A DNA stretch of 64,000 nucleotides from Candidatus Poribacteria bacterium (GTDB lineage Bacteria > Poribacteria > WGA-4E > JAJDTR01), in contig JAPPIK010000015.1 of NCBI GenBank assembly GCA_028820655.1, positions 1 through 64,000 of the forward strand, given 5' to 3'. The notes under the pieces were generated by a model that saw only the letters and a program-made list of their open reading frames with translations, made no database searches and had not been told where the DNA came from. Of the stretch, positions 405-61,300 are shown one piece after another. The translations under genes and the position numbers were made by a program. Positions within the stretch are counted from its first letter, which is position 1. Every line of letters begins with the position of its first letter.

Positions 405-2024
405 CTACTTCAAGATCAGCATCCGCCGCGTGGCTTGAAACGCGCCAGCCCGAAGCGTATAGAAATAAACCCCGCTTGAAACCATCTCTCCGGTGATATC
501 TCTACCGTCCCAATATGCCGCTGTTTCCCTGTCGCGATAATCGCCGGCTTCTTGCGTCCCCAAATCCAACGCCCGCACCAGTTGCCCATGGATGTTATGG
601 ATGCGAAACGTGACCGGCGCGTCTCCCGCCAGTCGGTAAGGCAACCAGGTTTCCGGATTGAATGGATTGGGGAAGTTTTGATAGAGCGCCGTCCGTTTGA
701 GATGAGCCAAGGTCGTGATCTTCAAACCAAACGGCTCGACGGCGAAGGGCGGCGTGTTGAAGTGCTCTGCGCCGCTATAAACATACGCCACGATGCCGTT
801 ACCGACTCCGACGCCCTTTTCCGGTCCGTCGCAGCCGGTGACAATGACAGTGTCGCCGCTTATGGCGATCGCGGAGCCGTAAAAGAGGTTTGGATGTGCA
901 ACCTCGGGCAGCACCGTTGCGGTATTTTTCCAGACGCCGTCAGCATTCACGAAGGAATACGCGGCGCCCGCGCTGAATCCGCCCGCTTCGCTGAGCGGAG
1001 CGCCAACGATCGCGATATTTCTGCTGGTGGCGACGCCTGATCCAAAGTGATCGCCTTTTCGCTTCTTTGGCGCAGTCAGCTTTGCCGCCTGATTCCAGGT
1101 GTTTCCGTCGCGCTGAAAAATGTATGCAGCGCCTGCGTCTCTTATTCCGTCGGGATCGTTCTTTTTGGATCCTACGATGATAGTGTCGCCTTCCATGCCG
1201 ACCGAAACGCCGAACTGGTCACCGGCTCCCGCATCGTCAGCCGTGAGTTTGGCTTGTTCCCTCCACGTATCGCCATCGCGGACGAACACGAAAACCGCGC
1301 CGGCGAATCTTGTGCCGCCATGTGTGTGCCCGGTCGCCCCGACAATAAGCGTGTCAGCTTGGATCTTGACCGCATCACCGAACGCATCCAATTTCGCCGA
1401 ATCCTTGGGGACGAGCTTGGCGTGCTGTTTCCATCCGTTTGCATCGCGGACGAAGAGGTAAACCGCCCCGGAATTGTTGCCGGCATCATCGTCCCCGGGC
1501 GCGCCAACCACCGCGGTAGTGCCATCGATTGAGACCACATGCCCGAAAGCGTCTCTCTGCCCCGCGTCGGCCGCGGTAAGTTTCACCTCCTGTTGCCAGT
1601 GAGGTGAGTTGAAGGCGTAAATATAGGCTGCCCCGGCGTTTTCTGCGCCTTCGTCATCGCCCGGCGCTCCGATAATGGCATAATCCGCGTGTCTGCGCCC
1701 CGGCGGCGCGCTGATTGAGACATCGTACCCGAATCCCGCCTGCCCGGTATTCGGTTTTCGGTCGTGAGCGGTAAGTTCCGCGGTCAGTTCCCACTTGTTC
1801 CGGTTCAGTGTGTAGATTCTGCCGGCGCCGGGATGCCTGTCGTGGTCCACATTATGCCTACCGACAATTACGACATCTCCCACAATCTCGGCGGGCAGTC
1901 GGCCTCGATTGCGTATTCCCTCCTCGGCCCCGATGAGCTTGATTTCGCCTTCGGCGGCGTGGCTGTCGCTCCCGGACGCGATACCAAGTAAAAAACCGAT
2001 GGCAATTAACCGAATTAATTTCAT
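405..2024 (-). CDS. secreted FG-GAP beta-propeller protein with C-terminal sorting domain (paralog 1)
   Basis: Predicted secreted or surface protein of 539 residues. The first ~24 residues form a signal peptide (MKLIRLIAIGFLLGIASG, then a short polar stretch). The body consists of about seven repeats built around [TA].[AVI]VGAP.D......AGA.Y.[FY], the FG-GAP/integrin-type propeller repeat, each followed by W....KL.A.D. The last ~95 residues are a FlgD-like / type 9-style sorting domain starting at QNFPNPFNPETWLPYRL and ending SSGVYFYTLRAG. The start is placed at the second ATG because AAGGAG lies six bases before it, whereas the first ATG abuts the Shine-Dalgarno sequence. First of four tandem paralogs. 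The ligand is unknown; a role in adhesion or surface display is inference from family architecture. Confidence 0.85.
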   Translation of the reverse strand: MKLIRLIAIGFLLGIASGSDSHAAEGEIKLIGAEEGIRNRGRLPAEIVGDVVIVGRHNVDHDRHPGAGRIYTLNRNKWELTAELTAHDRKPNTGQAGFGYDVSISAPPGRRHADYAIIGAPGDDEGAENAGAAYIYAFNSPHWQQEVKLTAADAGQRDAFGHVVSIDGTTAVVGAPGDDDAGNNSGAVYLFVRDANGWKQHAKLVPKDSAKLDAFGDAVKIQADTLIVGATGHTHGGTRFAGAVFVFVRDGDTWREQAKLTADDAGAGDQFGVSVGMEGDTIIVGSKKNDPDGIRDAGAAYIFQRDGNTWNQAAKLTAPKKRKGDHFGSGVATSRNIAIVGAPLSEAGGFSAGAAYSFVNADGVWKNTATVLPEVAHPNLFYGSAIAISGDTVIVTGCDGPEKGVGVGNGIVAYVYSGAEHFNTPPFAVEPFGLKITTLAHLKRTALYQNFPNPFNPETWLPYRLAGDAPVTFRIHNIHGQLVRALDLGTQEAGDYRDRETAAYWDGRDITGEMVSSGVYFYTLRAGAFQATRRMLILK

Positions 2025-2361
2025 AAGCATCTCCTTACTGTGCTATTAGCTAGCCGTTAAGCGACATTAATCTGTTAAATCCGCGTAATCTGCGACTCAG
2101 ACAATCACTACCCTTCCCTCACTCTCTCCTCTCCCATCCTTCCATTCTTCCGCCTTCCCCGCCGACCATCGCACATCCCGTTTTCTCGCTTTCCCGTCCT
2201 CCCCTCCTTCCTACTCTTTGCTGCTTTTACCGGTCACTGACCACTGCTTCTCGACCCCGCCAACCCCAGTGGATAGCGAGTGATCAAGGGAGATCAACTG
2301 ACTAGATAAGGAAGGCGATAGAGATCCCATAGAGATCCACAGGTCACCCAGCCGCCGCTTC
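2025..2361. repeat. gene-free: pyrimidine-rich tract plus GATC-bounded repeats
   Basis: Bases about 2095-2265 are nearly all C/T on this strand and end in 'ggtcactgaccactg'; a reverse-oriented relative lies at 40676-40815. Bases 2271-2338 hold a composite of the GATC-bounded repeat in which one copy seems inserted within another. No gene seen. Confidence 0.6.
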
Positions 2362-3993
2362 CTACTTCACGATCACCATTCGCCGCGAATCACGGAACGA
2401 AGGTGTCGCCAATTCGTAGATATAAACACCGCTGGATACCGGCTCCCCTTCACCGTTTAAACCATCCCAATACGCCGCATTCCTACGATCGGTGTAATGG
2501 CCGGCACCCTGATGCCCCATCTCCAATCGACGTACCGGCGCCCCCGCAATATCATAAATTGTCAGCGAAACATTCGCGTCTGCCGCCAACTGATACGGCA
2601 ACCACGTCTCCGGGTTGAACGGATTGGGGAAGTTTTGATAAAGCGCGGTGCGCTTGACCTGTCCCAGCGTTTCAATCTTCAATCCAAACGGCTCGACCGC
2701 GAAGGGCGGCGTGCCAAAGTGTTCCTCTCCGCTATAAACGTATGCAGCCGTACCGTTACCGAAACCGGCAGCGACTTCCGGAGCGGCTCCCGAACCCACA
2801 ACAATCGTGTCACCGCTTATGGCAATCGTGGAGCCGAAAACGAGGTTGGGCGCGGCATCATCTGGTGCAACCGTTACCGCTTTCTCCCAAACTCCATTGA
2901 CATTAACGAAGGAATACGCGGCGCCTCCGCCGAGTCCGCCCTCTTTGCGGAGCGGTGCGCCCACGACGGCAATCTTGCCTGTAGTGGCAACTCCCGCTCC
3001 GAAGTGGTCGCCCTTTTTCTTCCCCGGCGCAGTCAGTTTTGCACCCTGTTTCCAGTTGTTTCCGTCACGGACAAAGATGTACGCGGCGCCGGCATCTTTT
3101 GTGCCGCCAGCATCGTTCAGCAGTGATCCGACAATGACGTTGTCCCCTTCAATGTCGACCGAAACGCCGAATCGGTCGCTGGGTGCAGCATCGTCGGCGG
3201 TGAGTTTAGCTCGTTCTCTCCACGCGTCCCCTTCGCGTACAAAAACGAAAACGGCGCCCGCGAATCTTACGCCGTCATGAGTGTGCCCGGGTGCGCCGAT
3301 AATAGCCGTGTCCTTTTGGATGTCGACAGCCTCGCCCAGCGCGTCTGATCTCGCCAAGTCCTTGGGTTTGAGCTTGGCATGTTGCTTCCATCCATTCGCA
3401 TCGCGCACGTAGACATAGGCCGCCCCTGCGTTTTTCGCGGCACCGATATCTGCCTTGGGCGCGCCAACGACCGCCGCGGTGCCATCAATCGAGACCACGA
3501 ATCCGAAAGCGTCTCCCGCCACAGCGTCCGCGGCGGTGATTTTCATCTCCTGTTTCCAGTTTTTCCCGCTGAACGCGTAGATGTAGGCTGCGCCGGCGTC
3601 TTTCGCGGCGCCATCGTCGCCCGGCGCTCCGATGATCGCATAGTCCGCGATTGTTCTCCCCGTGCGGCCGCTGAGGGAGACGGCGAACCCGAAACCCGAC
3701 TGCCCCGGTTTCGGTTGGTCGAGATTTCGGTCGTGGGCGACGAGTTCCGCGGTCTTTTCCCACTTTCTTCGATTGCGCGTGAATATTCTACCGGCGCCGG
3801 CAAGGTTGTTGACATCCACATCATGCACCCCGAGGATAATAACATCCCCGACTATATCGACGGGCATGCGCGTTCTGTTGCGGGCTCCCTCTTGGGCACC
3901 GATGAGCTTGATTTCGCCGTCGGCGGCGTAACTGGTGGTTACGGATGCGATTCCAAGTAAGATACTGGCGATGATGAACCGGAGCGTTTTCAT
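2362..3993 (-). CDS. secreted FG-GAP beta-propeller protein with C-terminal sorting domain (paralog 2)
   Basis: A 543-residue predicted secreted protein with the same plan as its neighbours: signal peptide ending near SYA-ADGE, about seven FG-GAP-type blades (for example AAVVGAPKADIGAAKNAGAAY), and a C-terminal domain starting at LYQNFPNPFNPETWLPYQL and ending SSGVYIYELATPSF. The start is the second ATG (AAGGA seven bases upstream). The body is very close to paralog 3, but its last ~70 residues (SLTIYDIAGAPVRRLEMG...) differ from paralogs 1, 3 and 4, which share a FRIYN.HGQL type. This suggests the sorting tail has been exchanged by recombination. It lies in a ~1.97 kb tandem duplication with paralog 3. 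Confidence 0.85.
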   Translation of the reverse strand: MKTLRFIIASILLGIASVTTSYAADGEIKLIGAQEGARNRTRMPVDIVGDVIILGVHDVDVNNLAGAGRIFTRNRRKWEKTAELVAHDRNLDQPKPGQSGFGFAVSLSGRTGRTIADYAIIGAPGDDGAAKDAGAAYIYAFSGKNWKQEMKITAADAVAGDAFGFVVSIDGTAAVVGAPKADIGAAKNAGAAYVYVRDANGWKQHAKLKPKDLARSDALGEAVDIQKDTAIIGAPGHTHDGVRFAGAVFVFVREGDAWRERAKLTADDAAPSDRFGVSVDIEGDNVIVGSLLNDAGGTKDAGAAYIFVRDGNNWKQGAKLTAPGKKKGDHFGAGVATTGKIAVVGAPLRKEGGLGGGAAYSFVNVNGVWEKAVTVAPDDAAPNLVFGSTIAISGDTIVVGSGAAPEVAAGFGNGTAAYVYSGEEHFGTPPFAVEPFGLKIETLGQVKRTALYQNFPNPFNPETWLPYQLAADANVSLTIYDIAGAPVRRLEMGHQGAGHYTDRRNAAYWDGLNGEGEPVSSGVYIYELATPSFRDSRRMVIVK

Positions 3994-4324
3994 AAGCATT
4001 TCCTTACCGTGCTCTAGAAGTCACTGCAACTAATGATTTCGCATGCTTGTGGATAGTGAAATTCCTCTGTACCACAATCTGTTAAGTTGTGGATTCCGGA
4101 AACTTACAGTGGGATGTTCTATCGCGCGCTCGCTATTCACTCGCTTGATTGGTACAAGGAAGTCGCGATGGGGAGAAGATTTCTATCGCACTCACTATCC
4201 GTTGGGTTGATTGCTACGACGAACTCCAGTTATTGTGACTTGTGGATTACCAATTGGCGCGAATTACGATAGCGCCATGATTATGATTTCTGTTTATTCT
4301 CCCCGATCGTGCCTACATTCTATG
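3994..4324. repeat. intergenic copy 1 of the duplicated spacer
   Basis: No gene. It holds a CACAATCTGTTAAGTTGTG palindrome-like motif near 4074 and two diverged GATC-family repeats (about 4123-4158 and 4188-4226). The whole spacer recurs at 5960-6289 with high identity, which marks the ends of the tandem duplication. Confidence 0.75.
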
Positions 4325-5959
4325 CTACTTCAGAATGAGCATCCGGCGGGTGGACTGGAATGCCCCTGCCTGTAGTGTGTAGAAGTAGATTCCGCTCGAA
4401 ACCATCTCGCCATGTTCATCTCTACCATCCCAATAGGCAGCCGTGTCTCTGGACAGATAATTCCCCGGTACTTGATTGCCCAGATCCAACTCCCGCATCA
4501 ATTGACCATGGGTGTTATAGATGCGAAATGTAACCGGTGTGTCTGTCGCTAGGCGGTAAGGCAACCAGGTTTCGGGGTTGAACGGATTGGGGAAGTTTTG
4601 TAAAAGTGCGGTACGCTTGACTTGCCCCAGCGTTTCGATCTTCAGTCCAAACGGCTCGACGGCGAAGGGCGGTGTGCCAAAGTGTTCCTCTCCGCTATAA
4701 ACGTATGCCGCCGTACCGTTACCATATCCGGCATGAGGAGTGGGAGCGGCTCCACCTCCGAGAACAATCGTGTCGCCGCTTATAGCAACCGTAGAGCCAA
4801 GTAGAAGGTTTGGTCCGGGCTCATCGGGCACAACCGTTGCCGCGTTCTTCCAAACGCCGTCAACATTAACGAAGGAATACGCGGCACCCGCGCCGAGTCC
4901 GTCCTCTTCGCGGAGCGGTGCGCCAACCACGGCGATCATGCCGGTAGTGGCAACCCCTGCCCCGAAGCGGTCCCCCTTTCGCTTCTCCGGCGCAATCAAT
5001 TTTGCTTGTTGCGTCCACGTAGTTTCGTTACGGACAAAGATGTACGCGGCGCCGGCATCTTTTGTGCCGCCAGCATCGTTCAGCAAAGATCCGACAATGA
5101 CGGTGTCACCTTCAATGTCGACCGAAATGCCGAATCGGTCGCTGGATGCAGCATCGTCGGCAGTGAGTTTCGCCTGTTCCCTCCACGCATCCCCGTCACG
5201 CACAAAAACGAAAACGGCGCCCGCGAACCTGACGCCGCCATGAGTGTGCCCGGGCGCGCCGATAATAACTGTGTCCTTTTGGATGTCCACAGCCTCGCCC
5301 AGCGCGTCTGATCTCGCCGAATCTTTCGGAATGAGTTTCGCGTGTTGTCTCCATCTGTTCGCATCACGCACGAAGACGTAAGCAGCCCCGGCGTTTTTCG
5401 CGGCGCCAATATCTGCCTTGGGCGCGCCAACCACCGCAGTGGTGCCATCGATCGAGACTACGAATCCGAAAGCATCTCCCGCCGCCGCGTCACCCGCTGC
5501 AAGTTTTATTTCCTGTCTCCAGTTTTTCCCGTTTGAGGCGTAGATGTAGGCTGCCCCGGCGTCTTTCGCGGCACCGTTGTCGCCCGGCGCTCCGATGAGG
5601 GCATAATCCGCTGTTGTTCTCCCCGTGCGGCCGCTGAGGGAGACGGCGAATCCGAAACCGGATTGCCCCGGTTTCGGTTGGTCGAGATGTCGGTCGTGGG
5701 CAAGGAGTTCCGCCGACTGTTCCCATTTGTTTTTTCGGATCCGCGTGTAGATTCTGCCAGAGCCGAGAATATTGTTGATATCCACATCGTGTACGCCGAC
5801 GATAATGACATCTCCGACAACATCGACCGGCATACGCGCTCGATTGAGTGCGCCGTCTCCGGCTCCGATGAGCTTGATTTCGCCGTCGGCGGCGTGGATG
5901 GTGCTGCCCGAGGCGATGCCAAGTATAAGGCCTACAACGATGAACAGTGTTGTTTTCAT
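4325..5959 (-). CDS. secreted FG-GAP beta-propeller protein with C-terminal sorting domain (paralog 3)
   Basis: A 544-residue predicted secreted protein with signal peptide MKTTLFIVVGLILGIASG, FG-GAP blades (for example TVIIGAPGHTHGGVRFAGAV) and C-terminal sorting domain LLQNFPNPFNPETWLPYRL ending in SSGIYFYTLQAGAFQSTRR. It is nearly identical to paralog 2 through most of the propeller. The leader differs: where paralog 2 has GTAAGGAAATGCTT before the ATG, this copy has GTAAAAAAATGCTT, so the Shine-Dalgarno core is lost. Translation may therefore be weak, although the reading frame is intact. The start is assigned by analogy with the paralogs. Confidence 0.82.
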   Translation of the reverse strand: MKTTLFIVVGLILGIASGSTIHAADGEIKLIGAGDGALNRARMPVDVVGDVIIVGVHDVDINNILGSGRIYTRIRKNKWEQSAELLAHDRHLDQPKPGQSGFGFAVSLSGRTGRTTADYALIGAPGDNGAAKDAGAAYIYASNGKNWRQEIKLAAGDAAAGDAFGFVVSIDGTTAVVGAPKADIGAAKNAGAAYVFVRDANRWRQHAKLIPKDSARSDALGEAVDIQKDTVIIGAPGHTHGGVRFAGAVFVFVRDGDAWREQAKLTADDAASSDRFGISVDIEGDTVIVGSLLNDAGGTKDAGAAYIFVRNETTWTQQAKLIAPEKRKGDRFGAGVATTGMIAVVGAPLREEDGLGAGAAYSFVNVDGVWKNAATVVPDEPGPNLLLGSTVAISGDTIVLGGGAAPTPHAGYGNGTAAYVYSGEEHFGTPPFAVEPFGLKIETLGQVKRTALLQNFPNPFNPETWLPYRLATDTPVTFRIYNTHGQLMRELDLGNQVPGNYLSRDTAAYWDGRDEHGEMVSSGIYFYTLQAGAFQSTRRMLILK

Positions 5960-6289
5960 AAGCATTTTTTTACCGTGTTCTCAAAGTCATTGCAACTAAT
6001 TATTTCGGATGCCTGTGGATAATGAAATTCCTCTGTACCACAATCCGTTAGATTGTGGATTCCGGAAACTTACAGTGGAATGTTCTATCCCGCTCGCTAT
6101 TCGCTCGCTTGATTGGTACAAGGAAGTCGCGATGGGGAGAAGATTTCTATCGCACTCACTATCCGTTCGGTTGATTGCTACTACGAACCTCCATTTATTG
6201 TGACTCATGGATTACCAATTAGCATGAATTACGATGGCGCCATGACTATGATGCTTGTTTATTCTGCCCGATCGGGCCTACATTCTATG
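5960..6289. repeat. intergenic copy 2 of the duplicated spacer
   Basis: Near copy of 3994-4324: palindrome-like CACAATCCGTTAGATTGTG near 6038, two diverged GATC-family repeats (about 6080-6114 and 6146-6180), and the same 'attaccaatt' sequence before the next stop codon. No gene seen. Confidence 0.75.
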
Positions 6290-7909
6290 CTACTTCAGAA
6301 TGAGCATACGTCGGGTGGATTGGAACGTCCCAGCCTGGAGCGTGTAGAAGTAGACTCCGCTCGAAACCATTTCGCCTGATTGATTCATGCCATCCCAATA
6401 GGCTGCCGCTTCTCGGGACAGATAATCACCGGCCGCTTGAACGCCCAGATTCAACTCTCGCACTAGCTGCCCGTGGACATTATAAATGCCGAAGATCACC
6501 GGTGCGCCGGTCGCCAACCGGTAAGGCAACCATGTCTCCGGGTTGAACGGATTGGGAAAGTTCTGATGCAGTGCGGTACGCTTCATCTGCCCCAGCGTCG
6601 TCACGGCCAAACCAAAAGGCTGCACCGCGAACGGGGGCGTTCCGAAATCCTCAATACTGCTATATACGTAGGCGGCCGTTCCGGTACTCCTTGCGGCGAC
6701 ATTGTGCGGCGCCGCCCCTGCGGAAACAACCACGGTATTTTCGCTCATGGCGACCCAGGTGCCGAATCGGGTGTTCAGTCCGGCGTCTTCGGGCACGACC
6801 CTTTCCCGCTCCTCCCAGACGCCGTCAACATTTACGAATGAATATGCCGCGCCCGACGCGAGCGCGTTTTCTTCGTGCACATTTGCGCCGATAATGGCAA
6901 TTTTTCCGGTGGTTGCAACACTCGTCCCAAAATGGTCGTTCTTGCGTGTGCCCTTGGCTGCAAGTTTTGCCCCATGTTTCCACGTGTCTCCGTCAAGCGA
7001 GAAAACGTAGACGACCCCCGCGTCCTTTCCCGCTTGCGTATCGCGCAACGGCGCCCCGACGAGGAGTGTCTTGCCGCTCAGAGCGAGGGAATTGCCGAAC
7101 CGATCACTGGCTGCGGCGTCGTTCGCGGTGAGCTTTGCTTTTTGCCGCCACGCATCGCCCTCGCGCGTGAAGATGTAAACGGCGCCCGCGAATCTTGTAT
7201 CGCCGTGCGTGTGTCCGGGCGCTCCCACAATAACGGTGTCGCCTACAATGAGGACGGCCTCCCCAAAGGCGGACGATTTTCCCAAATTTTGGGGGACGAG
7301 TTTCAAATGCTGATTCCAACTGTTTCCATCTCGCACGAAGACATAGGCTGATCCGGAGTTGCTGCCGTCATCATCGTCCTTCGGTGCCCCAACGACCGCG
7401 GTGGTTCCGTGAATGGAGACGGCGAAACCGAAGGCATCGCCAGCCGCTCCGTCACCGGCGATAAGTTTCCCCTGCTGTTTCCAATTCTTTCCACTGCGGG
7501 CAAAGATATATGCGGAGCCGGATTTCGCGCCGGCGGCATCGTCCTGCGGCGCTCCGACGGCGGCAGAGTCAGCGCTGCCCCGCTGACCGACACGGCTGAT
7601 GGAGACCGACCATGCAAAGTCGCCGGCGCCGGGATTCGCCGGGTCGCGGTCTCCGGGGTGAAGTTCGGCCGTGCGGTTCCACTTCTTTCCGTCCCACTCG
7701 AAGATTATGGCGATGCTGTCCTTTTTGTTGTGCGCCAATATAAATCCTCCGAGGATGAGGGAGTCTCCGATGATATCGACGCACACGTGGCTGTTTGTCG
7801 CTCCCTTGTCGACACCAATCAGCTTGACACCCTTTCCGGCAAAGGCAGTTGCCGTCATTAATCCAAGGATACAGCAGACGAGGATGCGCTTTGGTATCTT
7901 CATCATCAT
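6290..7909 (-). CDS. secreted FG-GAP beta-propeller protein with C-terminal sorting domain (paralog 4)
   Basis: A 539-residue predicted secreted protein, the most diverged of the four paralogs. It has signal peptide MKIPKRILVCCILGLMTATAFA, propeller blades such as TAVVGAPKDDDDGSNSGSAY, and the sorting domain LHQNFPNPFNPETWLPYRL to YFYTLQAGTFQSTRR. The open frame continues 73 codons further upstream, but that extension has no family similarity. Three ATGs in a row follow GGAG at 7901-7909, so translation starts at one of them (7909 used here; 7903 gives the best spacing). It was probably the first gene of the array to diverge. Confidence 0.83.
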   Translation of the reverse strand: MMMKIPKRILVCCILGLMTATAFAGKGVKLIGVDKGATNSHVCVDIIGDSLILGGFILAHNKKDSIAIIFEWDGKKWNRTAELHPGDRDPANPGAGDFAWSVSISRVGQRGSADSAAVGAPQDDAAGAKSGSAYIFARSGKNWKQQGKLIAGDGAAGDAFGFAVSIHGTTAVVGAPKDDDDGSNSGSAYVFVRDGNSWNQHLKLVPQNLGKSSAFGEAVLIVGDTVIVGAPGHTHGDTRFAGAVYIFTREGDAWRQKAKLTANDAAASDRFGNSLALSGKTLLVGAPLRDTQAGKDAGVVYVFSLDGDTWKHGAKLAAKGTRKNDHFGTSVATTGKIAIIGANVHEENALASGAAYSFVNVDGVWEERERVVPEDAGLNTRFGTWVAMSENTVVVSAGAAPHNVAARSTGTAAYVYSSIEDFGTPPFAVQPFGLAVTTLGQMKRTALHQNFPNPFNPETWLPYRLATGAPVIFGIYNVHGQLVRELNLGVQAAGDYLSREAAAYWDGMNQSGEMVSSGVYFYTLQAGTFQSTRRMLILK

Positions 7910-8539
7910 GAATCTCCATTCACTGTTGCTGGTCAGGATTGTGCAATTTATTTCGAGCGGCGACGGCTCGATTCCGCGTACATCCGTGTAGCCTGCAACG
8001 AATATTGGACGTGGTATTTTTTTGGTGCGACATCTTTCCAAAAATAACCTGGATTGTGATGGCATCGACCAACGATGTTTGCGGCCCACGGGGCTCTCTA
8101 TGGGATCTCTACCGCGTTCGCTATTCACTCACTTGCTGGATCTCTACCGCGTTCGCTATTCACTCACTTGCTGGATCTCTACCGCGCTTGATTTCCACTC
8201 GCTTGATCCTATAGGATTGTGCGTGAAAGAAATCAAGTTTTCAAGAAAAAACTTGATTTCGGTGGTTTCGGGAAAAAACTCGGCTTCTGCGCTTTCGAGA
8301 TGAGAGCGCACAACTTGGATTAACTCTGAAATTGCGCTTGAAGCCTTAACCGGAGAGGCTTGAAGCGCCACGGGAGTGCGCTAAAGTGCGCGCGTATTTT
8401 TCGGTCCACTTATTGAGGAACGCCCAGAAAGCGGGTTAGATAGTATTGATTCCGCTAGGAATATGCCTCGCTCAATCTGGTTCCCCATCCGGTCTTTACT
8501 AGTCTTAGTGAACGCTTGGATCCCTATCGCACTCGCTGT
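7910..8539. repeat. gene-free: tandem GATC-family repeats and an A/T hairpin
   Basis: Bases 8100-8209 carry three head-to-tail partial copies of the GATC-family repeat, joined as '..cacttgctggatctctaccgcg..'. Bases 8228-8262 form an AAATCAAGTTTT / AAAACTTGATTT hairpin that recurs at 33409-33443. Another family copy lies at 8518-8554. No convincing gene. Confidence 0.65.
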
Positions 8540-8766
8540 CCACTCGCTTGATCACCGCTTTTCTCTTGAAGCGATATAGTGAAATGAGATGCCAACGGAG
8601 CGTCGATTTAAGCGATGTGTTGACATTTCCTGAATTTGAGAATTCCTTTGCTGGAGCGGGTTCTCAGGATTCGTAGTGCCAACAAAATGCCAAAAAGAAA
8701 ATAATGTTACACCGCCATGGCGGATGGTACCGTATAATATACCACACAACTGTTAAGTTTTCAATG
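8540..8766 (-). repeat. conserved promoter-plus-leader element, copy A
   Basis: On the minus strand this begins with a sigma70-like promoter (TTGAAA, 17-base spacer, TATATT), then a ~200-base leader with GTTRGCAT-type motifs, including GTTGGCAC, inverted ATGTCAAC and GTTGGCATC. The same order of blocks occurs on the plus strand at 34937-35140 (for example ACCCGCTCC.GCAAAGG.ATTCTC, CGCTTAAATC and TCGCTTCAAG). Both copies run directly into a GATC-family repeat. The 65-codon frame across this copy is not kept in copy B, so the element is probably not coding. Confidence 0.6.
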
Positions 8767-34354: not shown

Positions 34355-34936
34355 ACAAGTGATGACAAACCACACATTTCATTGTGCCATCCATTTAGAT
34401 AGACAACTTTCCGACATCGCTCTTTGCAGGTACGGTGACATTGCTGATTAGATGTGCGCAAGTTGCGACCCATTCCCGTAAATTGGGCTTCTAACCCGAC
34501 ACTCCTTTAGAATGCATCGCAAACCGGGGCGGCGTACATTAATTCGACGAAATCTGCTCGCAGTGGATTGACAAATTCACGGCACACATGCGCATACGGC
34601 TTGGATCTTCCTAGCCAAACCGAGCAGGACCACAATTTACACTCGGAAAATCTCAAATCCTACTGTTAACAAAAGGTAGCAACGTGGGTAGAATAACTAT
34701 ACTTTTTGATGCCTTCGCGAGGGACGCCTTTGGTGATGTGGCAAACCTGGCGCCGTCTGACAATATGCTCACGGTAACTATCTTGTGGCGTCAACTGTCG
34801 ATTGAATATCTCATTCCCTGAATCAAGCACTGGCTCCGATGTTCCTTGATGGGCCTGGGACACATAGTTTGGCTGTACCCTGATAACCGCTGTCAAGTTG
34901 ACTCTTCTTCCCTTCCGCAACTTGGAACTTTTAGAT
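34355..34936. other. gene-free stretch
   Basis: A 119-codon minus-strand frame (34666-35025) crosses the promoter-leader element and has no family motif, so it is not called. No other structure was recognised here. Confidence 0.4.
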
Positions 34937-35140
34937 TGACAACTTAACATGTATGTGGTATATTTTAACATAGTCACCCCATGGCGACCGAACTTTTTTT
35001 TCTGTTGGCATCTTGTTAGCATCACGATTGCTGAAAACCCGCTCCTGCAAAGGGATTCTCCATCTTAAAGAATGCTAACACGCCGCTTAAATCAGCGTTC
35101 CGTTAGCATCTCTTAACCACTAAGTCGCTTCAAGGAGAAA
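34937..35140 (+). repeat. conserved promoter-plus-leader element, copy B
   Basis: Starts with a near-ideal promoter (TTGACA, 17-base spacer, TATATT) whose spacer contains ACATGTATGT. It is followed by a leader carrying GTTGGCATC, GTTAGCATC, the inverted AATGCTAAC and GTTAGCATC. Block order and spacing match copy A (8540-8766, minus strand). No open frame follows: the ATGGCGACC frame stops after 12 codons. The right end runs into a GATC-family repeat exactly as in copy A. Confidence 0.6.
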
Positions 35141-35145
35141 ATTCG

Positions 35146-35459
35146 GGGATCAAGCGAGTGGATAGATCAAGTGACTGAATAAGGAACGCGATAGAAATCC
35201 AGCAAGTGAGTGAATAGCGAACGATCAAGAGAATGAATAATGACTGTGGGAGCGATTTCCGAATCGCGATAGCCCTCTGTAGGAGCGATCTCCAGGTCGC
35301 GATTCAGCAGTCGTAGGGTGGGCACCGCCCACCAGCCTCTAAAAGCCCCGGAGGGGATCAAACGAGCGGATAGCGAGTGATCAAGTGACCGGATAGGATC
35401 AAACGAGTGAATAACGAGTGCGATAGAAATCTTCGTGCGATAGAAATCCCATAGAGATC
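35146..35459 (-). repeat. dense array of nested GATC-family repeats
   Basis: At least five overlapping partial copies in one orientation, e.g. GATCAAGCGAGTGGATA followed at once by GATCAAGTGACTGAATA, and again near 35354-35459. A 'ggagcgatctccaggtcgcg' hairpin-like repeat (35282-35301) and 'gtagggtgggcaccgcccac' (35312-35331) are interposed. The clearest example of self-nesting in the window. Confidence 0.6.
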
Positions 35460-36252
35460 TTGAAGGTGTATGGAAACGCCAAGACCCCGTGTTCCAAAGC
35501 CCCAGCGGGGCGAAAGGTACGTAGTAGATTGCAATTAACACCTGAACTAACGCCGTATAAGTGACCAAAAATGGCTTTGCTGCAATTTTTCAAACAGGCT
35601 CTTAACGGCAGACAAAATGCCTGTTTCATTGCGAAAACGAGAAATCGAATGGTTTCCAGAAAACGTTCACAGGCTTCGAGATATTCTGGCCAGATTAAGT
35701 TTGTAGCCCGCCCTCACCGGTGAAAAGCGGACTGATTTAACTGAAATAGTGAAATAGTTGGTGAAAAAAGTGAAAAAACTATAGACAACCTTAGTTGCCG
35801 CCTGTGTCCGACAGGGCGCAGAAAACGAGTTTTTTCCCACGTGGACGCATGAGATTGACGAAAATGATCTCAATTTACACATAATTCACCCACGTGGAAA
35901 AAAATCGGATTCTTTCTTATAGGTAGCAACTTGCGTTAGACATCTTTCCTGATTGTCCCGAACTGCTGCCGATTGAAAATCTATCGACTGTGCATTGCGC
36001 CCTTGGTCCCTCAACACCGTGAACAATTTCTGATACGATTGACATTATTTTGGAAAGATTTTTAATCGATTCACGTGTGTTTCGGACGAATGGTATAGGT
36101 CCAATTCTCTAATTTGACAATGGGTTTCTGGCGGATGGTATGAGTCGAAATGGCGATTCGGAGATCGCTCCTACCGGGTAATGCATCGCACAACCGTGTA
36201 CGTCCCAACAGATCTGCTGAAACCACGAATGATCGACAACTAAAGACTTATC
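35460..36252. other. gene-free stretch with a nested palindrome
   Basis: Bases 35737-35780 contain short direct repeats (tgaaatag twice, tgaaaaa twice). Bases 35830-35909 form a nested palindrome: outer TTTTTTCCCACGTGG / CCACGTGGAAAAAAA and inner TGAGAT / ATCTCA. The remaining sequence shows no gene. Confidence 0.5.
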
Positions 36253-37419
36253 ATGAAGATAAAAGAGATAAAAGCTGTTAAGTTGAATGTGCCTCCCCGA
36301 ACAGGGAATCTGACACCCCAAAGGCGACCATCTTGGGCGGAGCACTCCGAGGTCGCCAACCCGATGTCAAAATATCCCAAATACAAACGCCGCCGCTCCA
36401 GTTGGATGCCGAAATGGGGCAGCGTCTTCGTGAAAGTCACCGCCGAGGACGGTACATGGGGACTTGGACAAACTACGTTCGGCAGACCCGTGGCTGCGAT
36501 CATCGATGACCACTTTGCCCCGAAGCTGGCGAGCGAAGACTGCTTCGCGGTCGAAAAGATCTGGGATATGATGTTCCGAATGTCTAAGCCCTACGGCTCA
36601 CAGGGGTTAACCAGTTGCGCGATGAGCGGTATCGACCTCGCCCTGTGGGATCTCATCGGCAGAATAAAGAACCAACCGGTTTACCAACTATTGGGCGGTC
36701 CCGTCCGCGACAGTCTCTTTGCATACGCAACGGGCAACGACACGGATTGGCAGATCGAACTCGGTTTCAAAGCGGTGAAGTTAGCGTGTCCCTATGGGCC
36801 GGTGGATGGGCTTTGGGGATTGAAGGAGAATGAAAAGCTGGTCGCCAAAACACGGGAGTTGGTCGGCGACGATGTCGAAATTATGTTGGATTGCTACATG
36901 GCGTTTGACGTCGACTACACCATCCGCTTGGCACAGCGGCTCAAACCGTACCGGTTGAAGTGGATCGAGGAATTTCTAATCCCGGAAGATATCGATGGAC
37001 ACGCCAAGGTTCGGGACGCCGTGAATTGGGTTTCTCTCGCAGGAGGGGAGCACCTCTATACCCGTTGGCCCTTCAAACAGATTATCGAGAAGGGGTGTCT
37101 GGATATCCTTCAGCCCGATATTTTCTGGGTTGGGGGCATCACGGAATGCGTCAAGATTTGTCACATGGCGGATGCCGCCGGACTCACCGTCATCTTTCAC
37201 GGCGGCGGCGGAAACCAATACGGACTCCATCTCTCGGCGGCCATGCCTAACACCCCTTGGGTGGAATACTTTCTCGGCTCCGCCCCGGGCGTGCCTATGG
37301 AAGAATCAAAATCTATTGACGGAGAATCCATTCCTGAAGATAGTTACATTGCGCCGAATGACGGGCCCGGCTTCGGATTAGAGATTAAGGAGGAGTGGAT
37401 TGTGCCGTTTTGGGATTAA
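36253..37419 (+). CDS. enolase-superfamily sugar-acid dehydratase, L-rhamnonate dehydratase-like
   Basis: A 388-residue mandelate racemase/enolase-superfamily enzyme. The N-terminal cap has NPMSKYPKYK, a signature of rhamnonate dehydratases. The barrel shows ALWDLIGRIKNQPVYQLLGG, metal ligands in EIMLDCYMAFDVDY (Asp), LKWIEEFLIPEDIDGH (Glu) and LAGGEHLYT (Glu), and the general-base region VIFHGGGGNQYGLH (His). These enzymes remove water from a sugar acid to give a 2-keto-3-deoxy acid. Specificity for L-rhamnonate is by resemblance only. First gene of a same-strand run with a second dehydratase and two PhyH genes. Confidence 0.8.
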   Translation: MKIKEIKAVKLNVPPRTGNLTPQRRPSWAEHSEVANPMSKYPKYKRRRSSWMPKWGSVFVKVTAEDGTWGLGQTTFGRPVAAIIDDHFAPKLASEDCFAVEKIWDMMFRMSKPYGSQGLTSCAMSGIDLALWDLIGRIKNQPVYQLLGGPVRDSLFAYATGNDTDWQIELGFKAVKLACPYGPVDGLWGLKENEKLVAKTRELVGDDVEIMLDCYMAFDVDYTIRLAQRLKPYRLKWIEEFLIPEDIDGHAKVRDAVNWVSLAGGEHLYTRWPFKQIIEKGCLDILQPDIFWVGGITECVKICHMADAAGLTVIFHGGGGNQYGLHLSAAMPNTPWVEYFLGSAPGVPMEESKSIDGESIPEDSYIAPNDGPGFGLEIKEEWIVPFWD

Positions 37420-60198: not shown

Positions 60199-60547
60199 GA
60201 CCCTCTCTTCTGTGTGTTTGCTCTCTGACATTCCATCGCCGAGAGTTTCATATGTCCTTCGTGTGTATGGATGATAACATATGCGAGGGTACAAATAAAG
60301 CATGGCTAACACGTTGGTTGGGTTGAACGTCGCCGGTGAATACTACCGAGCTTTCCAGGTAGCTATCGAGGGTTAAACTCGCCTGGCGTCTCCCGAATCT
60401 AGTGGAACCCATCTTGATACTCATCTTCCGCATAATAGTCTCGTGTAATCTCGAATTTTCACATCCTAGATTTTAGGGCATATCTCCACGAACGGGCAAA
60501 AATCACCTAGATACTTCCGCGAGTCCGATCGATTAACCGATTTTCCC
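60199..60547. other. gene-free stretch
   Basis: Upstream region of the S9 peptidase; nothing recognisable except the 5' part of its long open frame. Confidence 0.4.
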
Positions 60548-61300
60548 TATCAAGTAACACTTTTTCAAAACCAATCTTAGAGAAGGAAATCTGAACCACA
60601 ATCTGTTAGATTGTGATCCGCAAGCTAACAGTTTGCGGTACAAGAGTGTTGCTTGCTGAATGAATTATTCCGACAGGGATAATGGGGCGCGCTCAAGTAA
60701 CACTCGACATTGCACTCCTCTATCAAGTAACACTTTTTCAAAACCAATCTTAGAGAAGGAAATCTGTACCACAATCTGTTAGATTGTGATCCGCAAACTA
60801 ACAGTTTACGGTACAAGCGTGTTGGTTGCTGAATGAATTATTCCGACAGGGTTGATGGCGTGCTATCAAGTAACACTCGACATTGCACTCCGCTGGAGTG
60901 CAGACGCGAGGAGTAATCGTGTACTATTGACATTTCACTCCGCTGGAGTGAAAACCAGACCACGAAGGAACACTTTTACGGCCAGTCATAGAGCGAAAAA
61001 TTAATGTGACCCGCTGATGGATTGTGATCGCAAACTAACAGTTTGCGGTACAAGAGTGTTGGTTGCTGAATGAATTATTCCGACAGGGATAATGGGGCGC
61101 GCTCAAGTAACACTCGACATTGCACTCCTCTGGAGTGCAGACGCGAGGAGGAATCGTGTTCTATTGACATCTCGCTCCGCCGGAGTGAAAAACATGCCGG
61201 TAAGGAACGTTATTGCAGAGCCTGTCACGGAGCGAAGAAGGCGTGTTACTTGCTGAAAGAATTATACCGACAGGGATAATGGCACGCTGTCAATCATGAT
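60548..61300. repeat. tandem 173-bp duplication and CAAGTAACAC mini-elements
   Basis: Bases 60548-60720 are repeated at 60721-60893, and a third partial copy starts near 61012. Each unit holds a CACAATCTGTTAGATTGTG palindrome, a CAAACTAACAGTTTGCG-type palindrome and a mini-element with ends GTGTTGCTTG/CAAGTAACAC (60646-60702, 60819-60876, 61056-61113, degenerate 61242-61300). GCACTCC/GGAGTGC hairpins follow (60885-60901, 61122-61138). No gene. Confidence 0.65.

What the first reader, a model, noticed from the sequence alone, without database searches (positions are those of the whole stretch)
8540..8766. Promoter-plus-leader element in two inverted copies 26 kb apart
The minus strand of 8540-8766 and the plus strand of 34937-35140 share the same ordered blocks: a strong promoter (TTGA.A, 17 bases, TATATT), a start-like ATGGCG, two direct GTTRGCAT-type motifs, the block ACCCGCTCC.GCAAAGG, an inverted copy of the motif, CGCTTAAATC, another direct copy and TCGCTTCAAG. 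Both end against a GATC-family repeat, and neither leads into a conserved open frame. A strong promoter with a structured, motif-rich non-coding leader suggests a small RNA, a recombinase-bound end, or the regulated start of a lost mobile gene.
Basis: seen in the sequence. Interest (0 to 1): 0.66.

Follow-up and report, generated by a model that had tools for sequence, protein, structure and literature searches.

The report
Transposon-borne promoter-leader cassettes in Poribacteria
The two look-alike stretches are copies of a widely scattered, gene-free DNA cassette (a strong promoter plus a conserved leader) that rides on small transposons and sits in front of unrelated genes, pointing into them, so it is probably a movable control region for gene expression.

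Summary
In detail: the two stretches are homologous (about 75-76% identical), non-coding, and begin with a near-consensus sigma-70-type promoter. They are not a pair. The genome, a relative of Candidatus Poribacteria, holds about 42 copies of a 118-nt core and a congener holds 15; among the 72 genomes of the order searched only one other has a copy (1). At both window loci the congener has the orthologous flanking genes but no element, so these are insertions or losses; copy 2 lies in a 1665-bp segment bounded by inverted repeats. In the congener the same core sits in MITEs of a different transposon type, with 10-bp target duplications. The core is therefore cargo, not a transposase-bound end. 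The next downstream gene is on the same strand in 28 of 28 window-family copies and 23 of 25 further matches, while upstream genes point either way; downstream genes are unrelated. Best reading: a mobile promoter-leader cassette. Inside the core, motifs 2, 3 and 4 switch together within each copy, so two mutually exclusive stems (2:3, 3:4) are conserved, suggesting an attenuator-like leader; wobble statistics do not support RNA over DNA. Transcription and function are untested. New variant of promoter-bearing MITEs.

The parts
8736..8764 (-). copy 1 promoter-like sequence, -35 TTGAAA (8764-8759), 17-bp spacer, -10 TATATT (8741-8736)
8584..8701 (-). copy 1 118-nt conserved core
8687..8694 (-). 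copy 1 motif 1 (direct)
8676..8683 (-). copy 1 motif 2 (direct)
8619..8626 (-). copy 1 motif 3 (inverted)
8589..8596 (-). copy 1 motif 4 (direct)
8027..8039 (-). copy 1 right terminal-repeat-like end (GGAAAGATGTCGC); left end not recognised
34400..36064 (+). copy 2 whole inserted element, bounded by inverted repeats TAGACAACTTTCC and GGAAAGATTTTTA
   Evidence: absent from the orthologous G001 interval
34936..34964 (+). copy 2 promoter-like sequence, -35 TTGACA (34936-34941), 17-bp spacer, -10 TATATT (34959-34964)
34997..35114 (+). copy 2 118-nt conserved core
35004..35011 (+). copy 2 motif 1 (direct)
35015..35022 (+). copy 2 motif 2 (direct)
35072..35079 (+). copy 2 motif 3 (inverted)
35102..35109 (+). 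copy 2 motif 4 (direct)
6290..8128 (-). next gene downstream of copy 1, FG-GAP repeat protein (similarity to the G001 orthologue begins at 7921)
36253..37419 (+). next gene of 150 aa or more downstream of copy 2, MR_MLE/enolase-superfamily protein

Best explanation
Both stretches are members of one family of transposon-borne, gene-free promoter-leader cassettes. A cassette carries a near-consensus sigma-70 promoter, then a 118-nt almost indel-free core, then variable non-coding sequence up to a right inverted repeat on the side of the host gene. Shown: repeats bounding several copies, presence/absence between two species at both window loci, homologous cores inside two unrelated transposon types, and same-strand position upstream of unrelated genes. 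Inferred: the cassettes supply or retune transcription of the gene behind them, and copies in sense orientation are kept. Inferred, weaker (about 0.4): the core acts in the nascent transcript, where motif 3 pairs either with motif 2 (closing a loop with conserved GAACCCGCnC...CAAAGG) or with motif 4, an attenuator-like choice that conditions read-through into the gene.
For: About 42 cores in G000, 15 in G001, 1 in G014. Presence/absence: flanking genes 86-91% identical at the DNA level in G001, but the intergenic interval is 331 bp against 1899 bp in the window (copy 2) and 282 against 1200 bp (copy 1), with no core match in G001 there. Copy 2 is bounded by inverted repeats. G001 relatives lie in elements with repeats CAGGGGAAACGCATCTGA and 10-bp duplications, exact in G001k and G001i, near-exact in G001m and G001g (G001i left flank); a complete 1252-bp element with the same repeats and a 10-bp duplication encodes a 381-aa DDE transposase. 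Next downstream ORF of at least 150 aa on the same strand: 28 of 28 window-family copies with data (30 examined) and 23 of 25 with data among 27 further matches; upstream genes 33 plus, 24 minus. Downstream proteins are unrelated, e.g. S6, thymidylate kinase, EngA-type GTPase, SDF symporter. Motifs 2:3 and 3:4 covary, with three Watson-Crick pair types in one column pair of each stem; 1:3 does not at its key column. Motif type changes several times on a tree built without motif columns, 10 changes in all.
Against: No transcription data. Gaps to the gene are long (47 to 2530 nt after the core in the window family) and hold repeats and terminator-like hairpins. L023, L025, L028 and L029 lack the adjacent promoter; L025 and L028 have one about 330 and 900 nt upstream. 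Single departures in the stems are not enriched for wobble-compatible changes (3:4: 9 kept, 28 broken; 2:3: 12 kept, 21 broken). Folding of single cores is only moderately better than shuffles: z -0.55, -2.17, -2.02, -0.21, -2.03 for five. Both repeats with 3 or fewer mismatches were found for only 6 of 30 window-family copies (left 10, right 14), before the looser fit for copy 2.
Confidence: 0.68

Rival explanations
1. The core is an operator array: motifs 1 to 4 are DNA sites of a repressor or activator that controls the cassette promoter, and the fixed spacing reflects cooperative binding.
For: 26 of 28 cores align over 118 columns without internal gaps; motifs 1 and 2 are 11 bp apart, one helical turn; no excess of wobble-compatible changes.
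Against: In one genome (G000) three motif types coexist and motifs 2, 3 and 4 match within each copy, which a single protein would not require; motif 1 does not follow. Several paralogous proteins would be needed.
Confidence: 0.3
2. Neutral promoter-bearing MITEs: the transposon spreads, the promoter is incidental, and sense orientation arises because antisense or convergent insertions are purged.
For: Repeats and target duplications; promoter-bearing MITEs are known (passages of PMC10969869); short 236-bp MITEs with the same repeats are common in G001 and lie mainly between divergent genes (12 of 19 with both neighbours called).
Against: The core stays nearly gap-free while flanks diverge; the same core rides on two transposon types; two element sites are retained at orthologous places in both species (C4b/G001j, C56a/G001a).
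Confidence: 0.25
3. A multicopy stand-alone small RNA gene family.
For: Strong promoter, pairable motifs and hairpins.
Against: Strict same-strand placement upstream of genes; no Rfam match for copy 2 up to E 5 nor for the window at gathering level apart from two tRNAs.
Confidence: 0.12

Closest known systems
Putative mobile promoters (Matus-Garcia, Nijveen and van Passel 2012 and later; concept recalled, titles seen only in the reference list of PMC9208149; papers not held)
   Same: homologous promoter regions upstream of non-homologous genes in one genome
   Different: here the unit is long, has inverted repeats, carries a conserved leader with coordinated motif switching, and uses two transposon types
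Correia elements and other promoter-bearing bacterial MITEs (passages of PMC10969869)
   Same: small non-autonomous elements with sigma-70-type promoters near genes
   Different: no shared sequence was tested; here one promoter points through a conserved leader to the downstream gene in nearly all copies
ISAs1-type insertion sequences and their MITEs (family name recalled)
   Same: G001 elements share the repeats and 10-bp target duplication of a transposase-bearing copy with DDE_Tnp_1 and DDE_Tnp_1_assoc domains
   Different: window copies have other repeats, linked to an HTH_Tnp_4 transposase fragment
Transcription attenuators and riboswitch leaders (recalled)
   Same: mutually exclusive stems shared by one strand, conserved loop, 5' position
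   Different: no Rfam match, no gene-function theme, and no shown termination or ligand

Membership tests
Mobile promoter | homologous promoter region upstream of unrelated genes, several copies in a genome | tested here: met
Mobile promoter | promoter is active for the downstream gene | not testable with these tools
   no transcript data available
MITE (window family) | terminal inverted repeats shared with a transposase-bearing element | tested here: inconclusive
   repeats in a minority of copies and at copy 2; transposase fragment next to one such repeat in G001 (L172), no complete autonomous copy assembled
MITE (window family) | target-site duplication | tested here: inconclusive
   TA at both ends of most well-preserved pairs; too short to prove
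MITE, ISAs1-type (G001 family) | repeats plus 10-bp target duplication and an autonomous relative | tested here: met
   duplication clear or near-exact in 4 of the G001 elements inspected, absent or unclear in others
Riboswitch or attenuator leader | alternative base-paired stems supported by covariation | tested here: inconclusive
   for; wobble counts and weak folding z-scores against
Riboswitch or attenuator leader | terminator-type hairpin followed by a T-run | tested here: not met
   hairpin before the T-run at the start of the core no better than shuffles, mean z -0.22, n=44; other positions not tested
Known Rfam RNA family | match to a covariance model | tested here: not met

The most novel reading that the evidence does not exclude
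A mobile cis-regulatory RNA device: a leader that switches between two mutually exclusive stems, whose pairing motifs have been rewritten in step several times, has been carried by at least two unrelated transposon types and placed in sense in front of dozens of unrelated, partly essential genes, so that transposition builds a regulon. It could even be a processive antitermination element that lets polymerase cross the long repeat-filled leaders.
Probability: 0.2. Interest if true: 0.82.

Novelty: new variant of a known kind. Interest (0 to 1): 0.56.

Why it matters
If the cassettes drive the genes behind them, this is a case where a bacterium has wired many unrelated genes, including ribosomal protein S6, thymidylate kinase and an EngA-type GTPase, to one transposable control region with a conserved leader. 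It makes the origin of regulons by transposition testable with natural presence/absence pairs between two related species, in an uncultivated lineage.

Tried and rejected
Protein-coding fragment: rejected. Terminator hairpin in front of the T-run: folded in 44 copies, not above shuffles. Transposase-bound end: rejected because the core is internal and shared by two transposon types. Empty site at der: the named relative L204 (der 90% identical) has no core match, but its upstream region is not collinear, so no clean empty site. Same-gene case L028/G001e: both lie upstream of the orthologous SDF gene, but the elements are not collinear and belong to different motif types. Exact core pattern in genome contigs: none. 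Viral contigs: four exact hits to a short core pattern, only 27-38-nt partial model matches in three of them, taken as chance. G012 and G004 model hits with R1 (E about 0.006-0.008) were not kept by R2 at E 0.001; the G012 hit lies inside an ORF. Rows dropped before counts: L006 (same core as L005) and L027 (partial) from alignments A2-A4; C18, C56c, C22c, G001n, G012 and G004 were not put into A4; L018 and L030 were left out of the periodicity test; L007, L010, G014 and C21 have no downstream ORF in hand. The two same-strand exceptions are G001n (core match only 84 nt) and G012. A first guess that the host was a planctomycete (used in one search) was wrong.

Full report
1. Observation. Each begins with a near-consensus promoter of 17-bp spacing. 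They share no coding frame.

2. Copy number. BLAST of copy 1 against its own genome (G000, 5.88 Mb in 61 contigs) returned 42 matches, 30 of them substantial and spread over many contigs; most of the weakest are only the adjoining GATC repeat. A sequence-only model from 28 cores (R1) found 40 matches in G000, 15 in the congener G001 and one full match in G014 among 58 genomes at E 0.01, plus one weak match each in G012 and G004; a model from 49 cores (R2) found 42, 15 and 1 among 72 genomes of the order at E 0.001, nothing elsewhere. Both models include copies they re-find. The organism is related to Candidatus Poribacteria MAGs: the EngA-type GTPase behind one copy is 90% identical to one in JAJDTR010000063.1.

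3. Anatomy. The conserved core is 118 nt and 26 of 28 copies fit without internal gaps, although flanks diverge. It holds motif 1 and motif 2 (direct), a block GAACCCGCnC...CAAAGG, motif 3 (inverted), and motif 4 (direct). Promoter and core are neighbours in 24 of 28 aligned copies. In L004, L015, L018 and L019 the sequence after the core runs straight into a second conserved stretch, so the GATC repeat seen at both window copies is a later insertion. In the second subfamily (mostly G001) the promoter is further upstream, in most copies about 150-200 nt before the core, and motifs 2, 3 and 4 read GTTCACAT, ATGTGAAC, GTTCACAT.

4. Mobility. The G001 elements have inverted repeats CAGGGGAAACGCATCTGA. 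Ten-base duplications are exact in G001k and G001i and near-exact in G001m and G001g; G001b shows none. A complete 1252-bp element with these repeats and duplication tgtgtgatgg encodes a 381-aa transposase with DDE_Tnp_1_assoc and DDE_Tnp_1 domains, an ISAs1-type element by recall. Window-family copies have other repeats, TAGACATCTTTCCRAA (left 10 of 30, right 14 of 30, both 6 of 30, up to 3 mismatches; the opposite orientation 1 of 30 upstream and 6 of 30 downstream); a G001 contig with this repeat carries a 132-aa fragment with an HTH_Tnp_4 domain. Copy 2 lies in window 34400-36064 between TAGACAACTTTCC and GGAAAGATTTTTA. In G001 the genes on both sides of each window copy are conserved (86-91% DNA identity) but the interval is 331 instead of 1899 bp (copy 2) and 282 instead of 1200 bp (copy 1), with no core match. 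Gain or loss cannot be told apart from two species, and other repeats share these intervals.

5. Direction. The next downstream ORF of at least 150 aa is on the same strand in 28 of 28 window-family copies with data and in 23 of 25 of the other matches with data; the upstream neighbour is plus in 33 and minus in 24. ORFs were chosen mechanically (longest non-overlapping), not by a gene finder. Between divergent genes either orientation would count as same-strand; that covers 9 of the 28, and the other 19 lie between genes that both point the same way as the cassette, none against it. Of 27 downstream proteins scanned, not all of them the nearest gene, 24 have Pfam matches, of unrelated families. 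As a control, 20 promoter-free 236-bp MITEs of the G001 repeat type lie mainly between divergent genes (12 of 19 with both neighbours called), so placement near gene starts is shared by the transposon type, but the one-sided bias is seen for the cassettes.

6. The core. In 49 cores motif 3 is the exact complement of motif 2 in 32 and of motif 4 in 29, of motif 1 in 1. In each of the two stems at least two column pairs vary on both sides, one of them among three Watson-Crick pair types; the 1:3 control fails at its key column. On a tree built without motif columns the motif type needs 10 changes (no shuffle as low, 200 tried), though well-supported branches force fewer. Because three motif types coexist in one genome and match within copies, base pairing inside a copy is the simplest reason. 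Against it: single departures are not biased to wobble pairs, single-sequence folding is weak to moderate, the first alignment of 28 gave little covariation beyond one column, and the inner hairpins are not kept in the GTTCACAT subfamily (inspection).

7. Comparison. Mobile promoters and promoter-bearing MITEs are known kinds (passages of PMC10969869 and PMC9208149; search listings). What I did not see in print in searches (open-access full texts only; listings read, not the papers) is a conserved leader of this kind shared by two transposon types. I therefore file it as a new variant of a known kind.

Noticed in passing
G000 and G001 genomes; e.g. L128, L130-L133, L141 and L129, L134-L138, L142, L143, L148: The promoter TTGACAACTTNACANNTNTNTNGTATNATA (up to 2 mismatches) occurs 47 times in G000 and 12 in G001, reversed control 0. 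It also heads at least two other non-coding multicopy families, with GTTAGCCC/GGGCTAAC motifs in one, and some protein genes; the next ORF is on the same strand in 25 of 27 (31 sites examined).
   Followed up: partly
promoter spacer, e.g. L136, L137 and L143: In some copies the promoter spacer is a perfect palindrome ACTATACA-CA-TGTATAGT, operator-like.
   Followed up: no
window 405-8128, minus strand: Copy 1 heads a row of four large ORFs (541, 545, 546 and 612 aa); the nearest is an FG-GAP protein and part of a second (5611-4325) matches the same G001 gene, so at least these two look like paralogues.
   Followed up: partly
L058:2795-3513 and G000 C4:291068-291784: Elements of about 717-719 bp with the TAGACATCTTTCC repeats carry the same kind of promoter and, in L058, yet another non-coding leader.
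   Followed up: partly
L028 and G001e: Orthologous SDF symporter genes (89.8% aa identity) in the two species have different core types upstream, in non-collinear elements.
   Followed up: partly
window 60547-60891: A 173-bp unit in two tandem copies, 93% alike.
   Followed up: no
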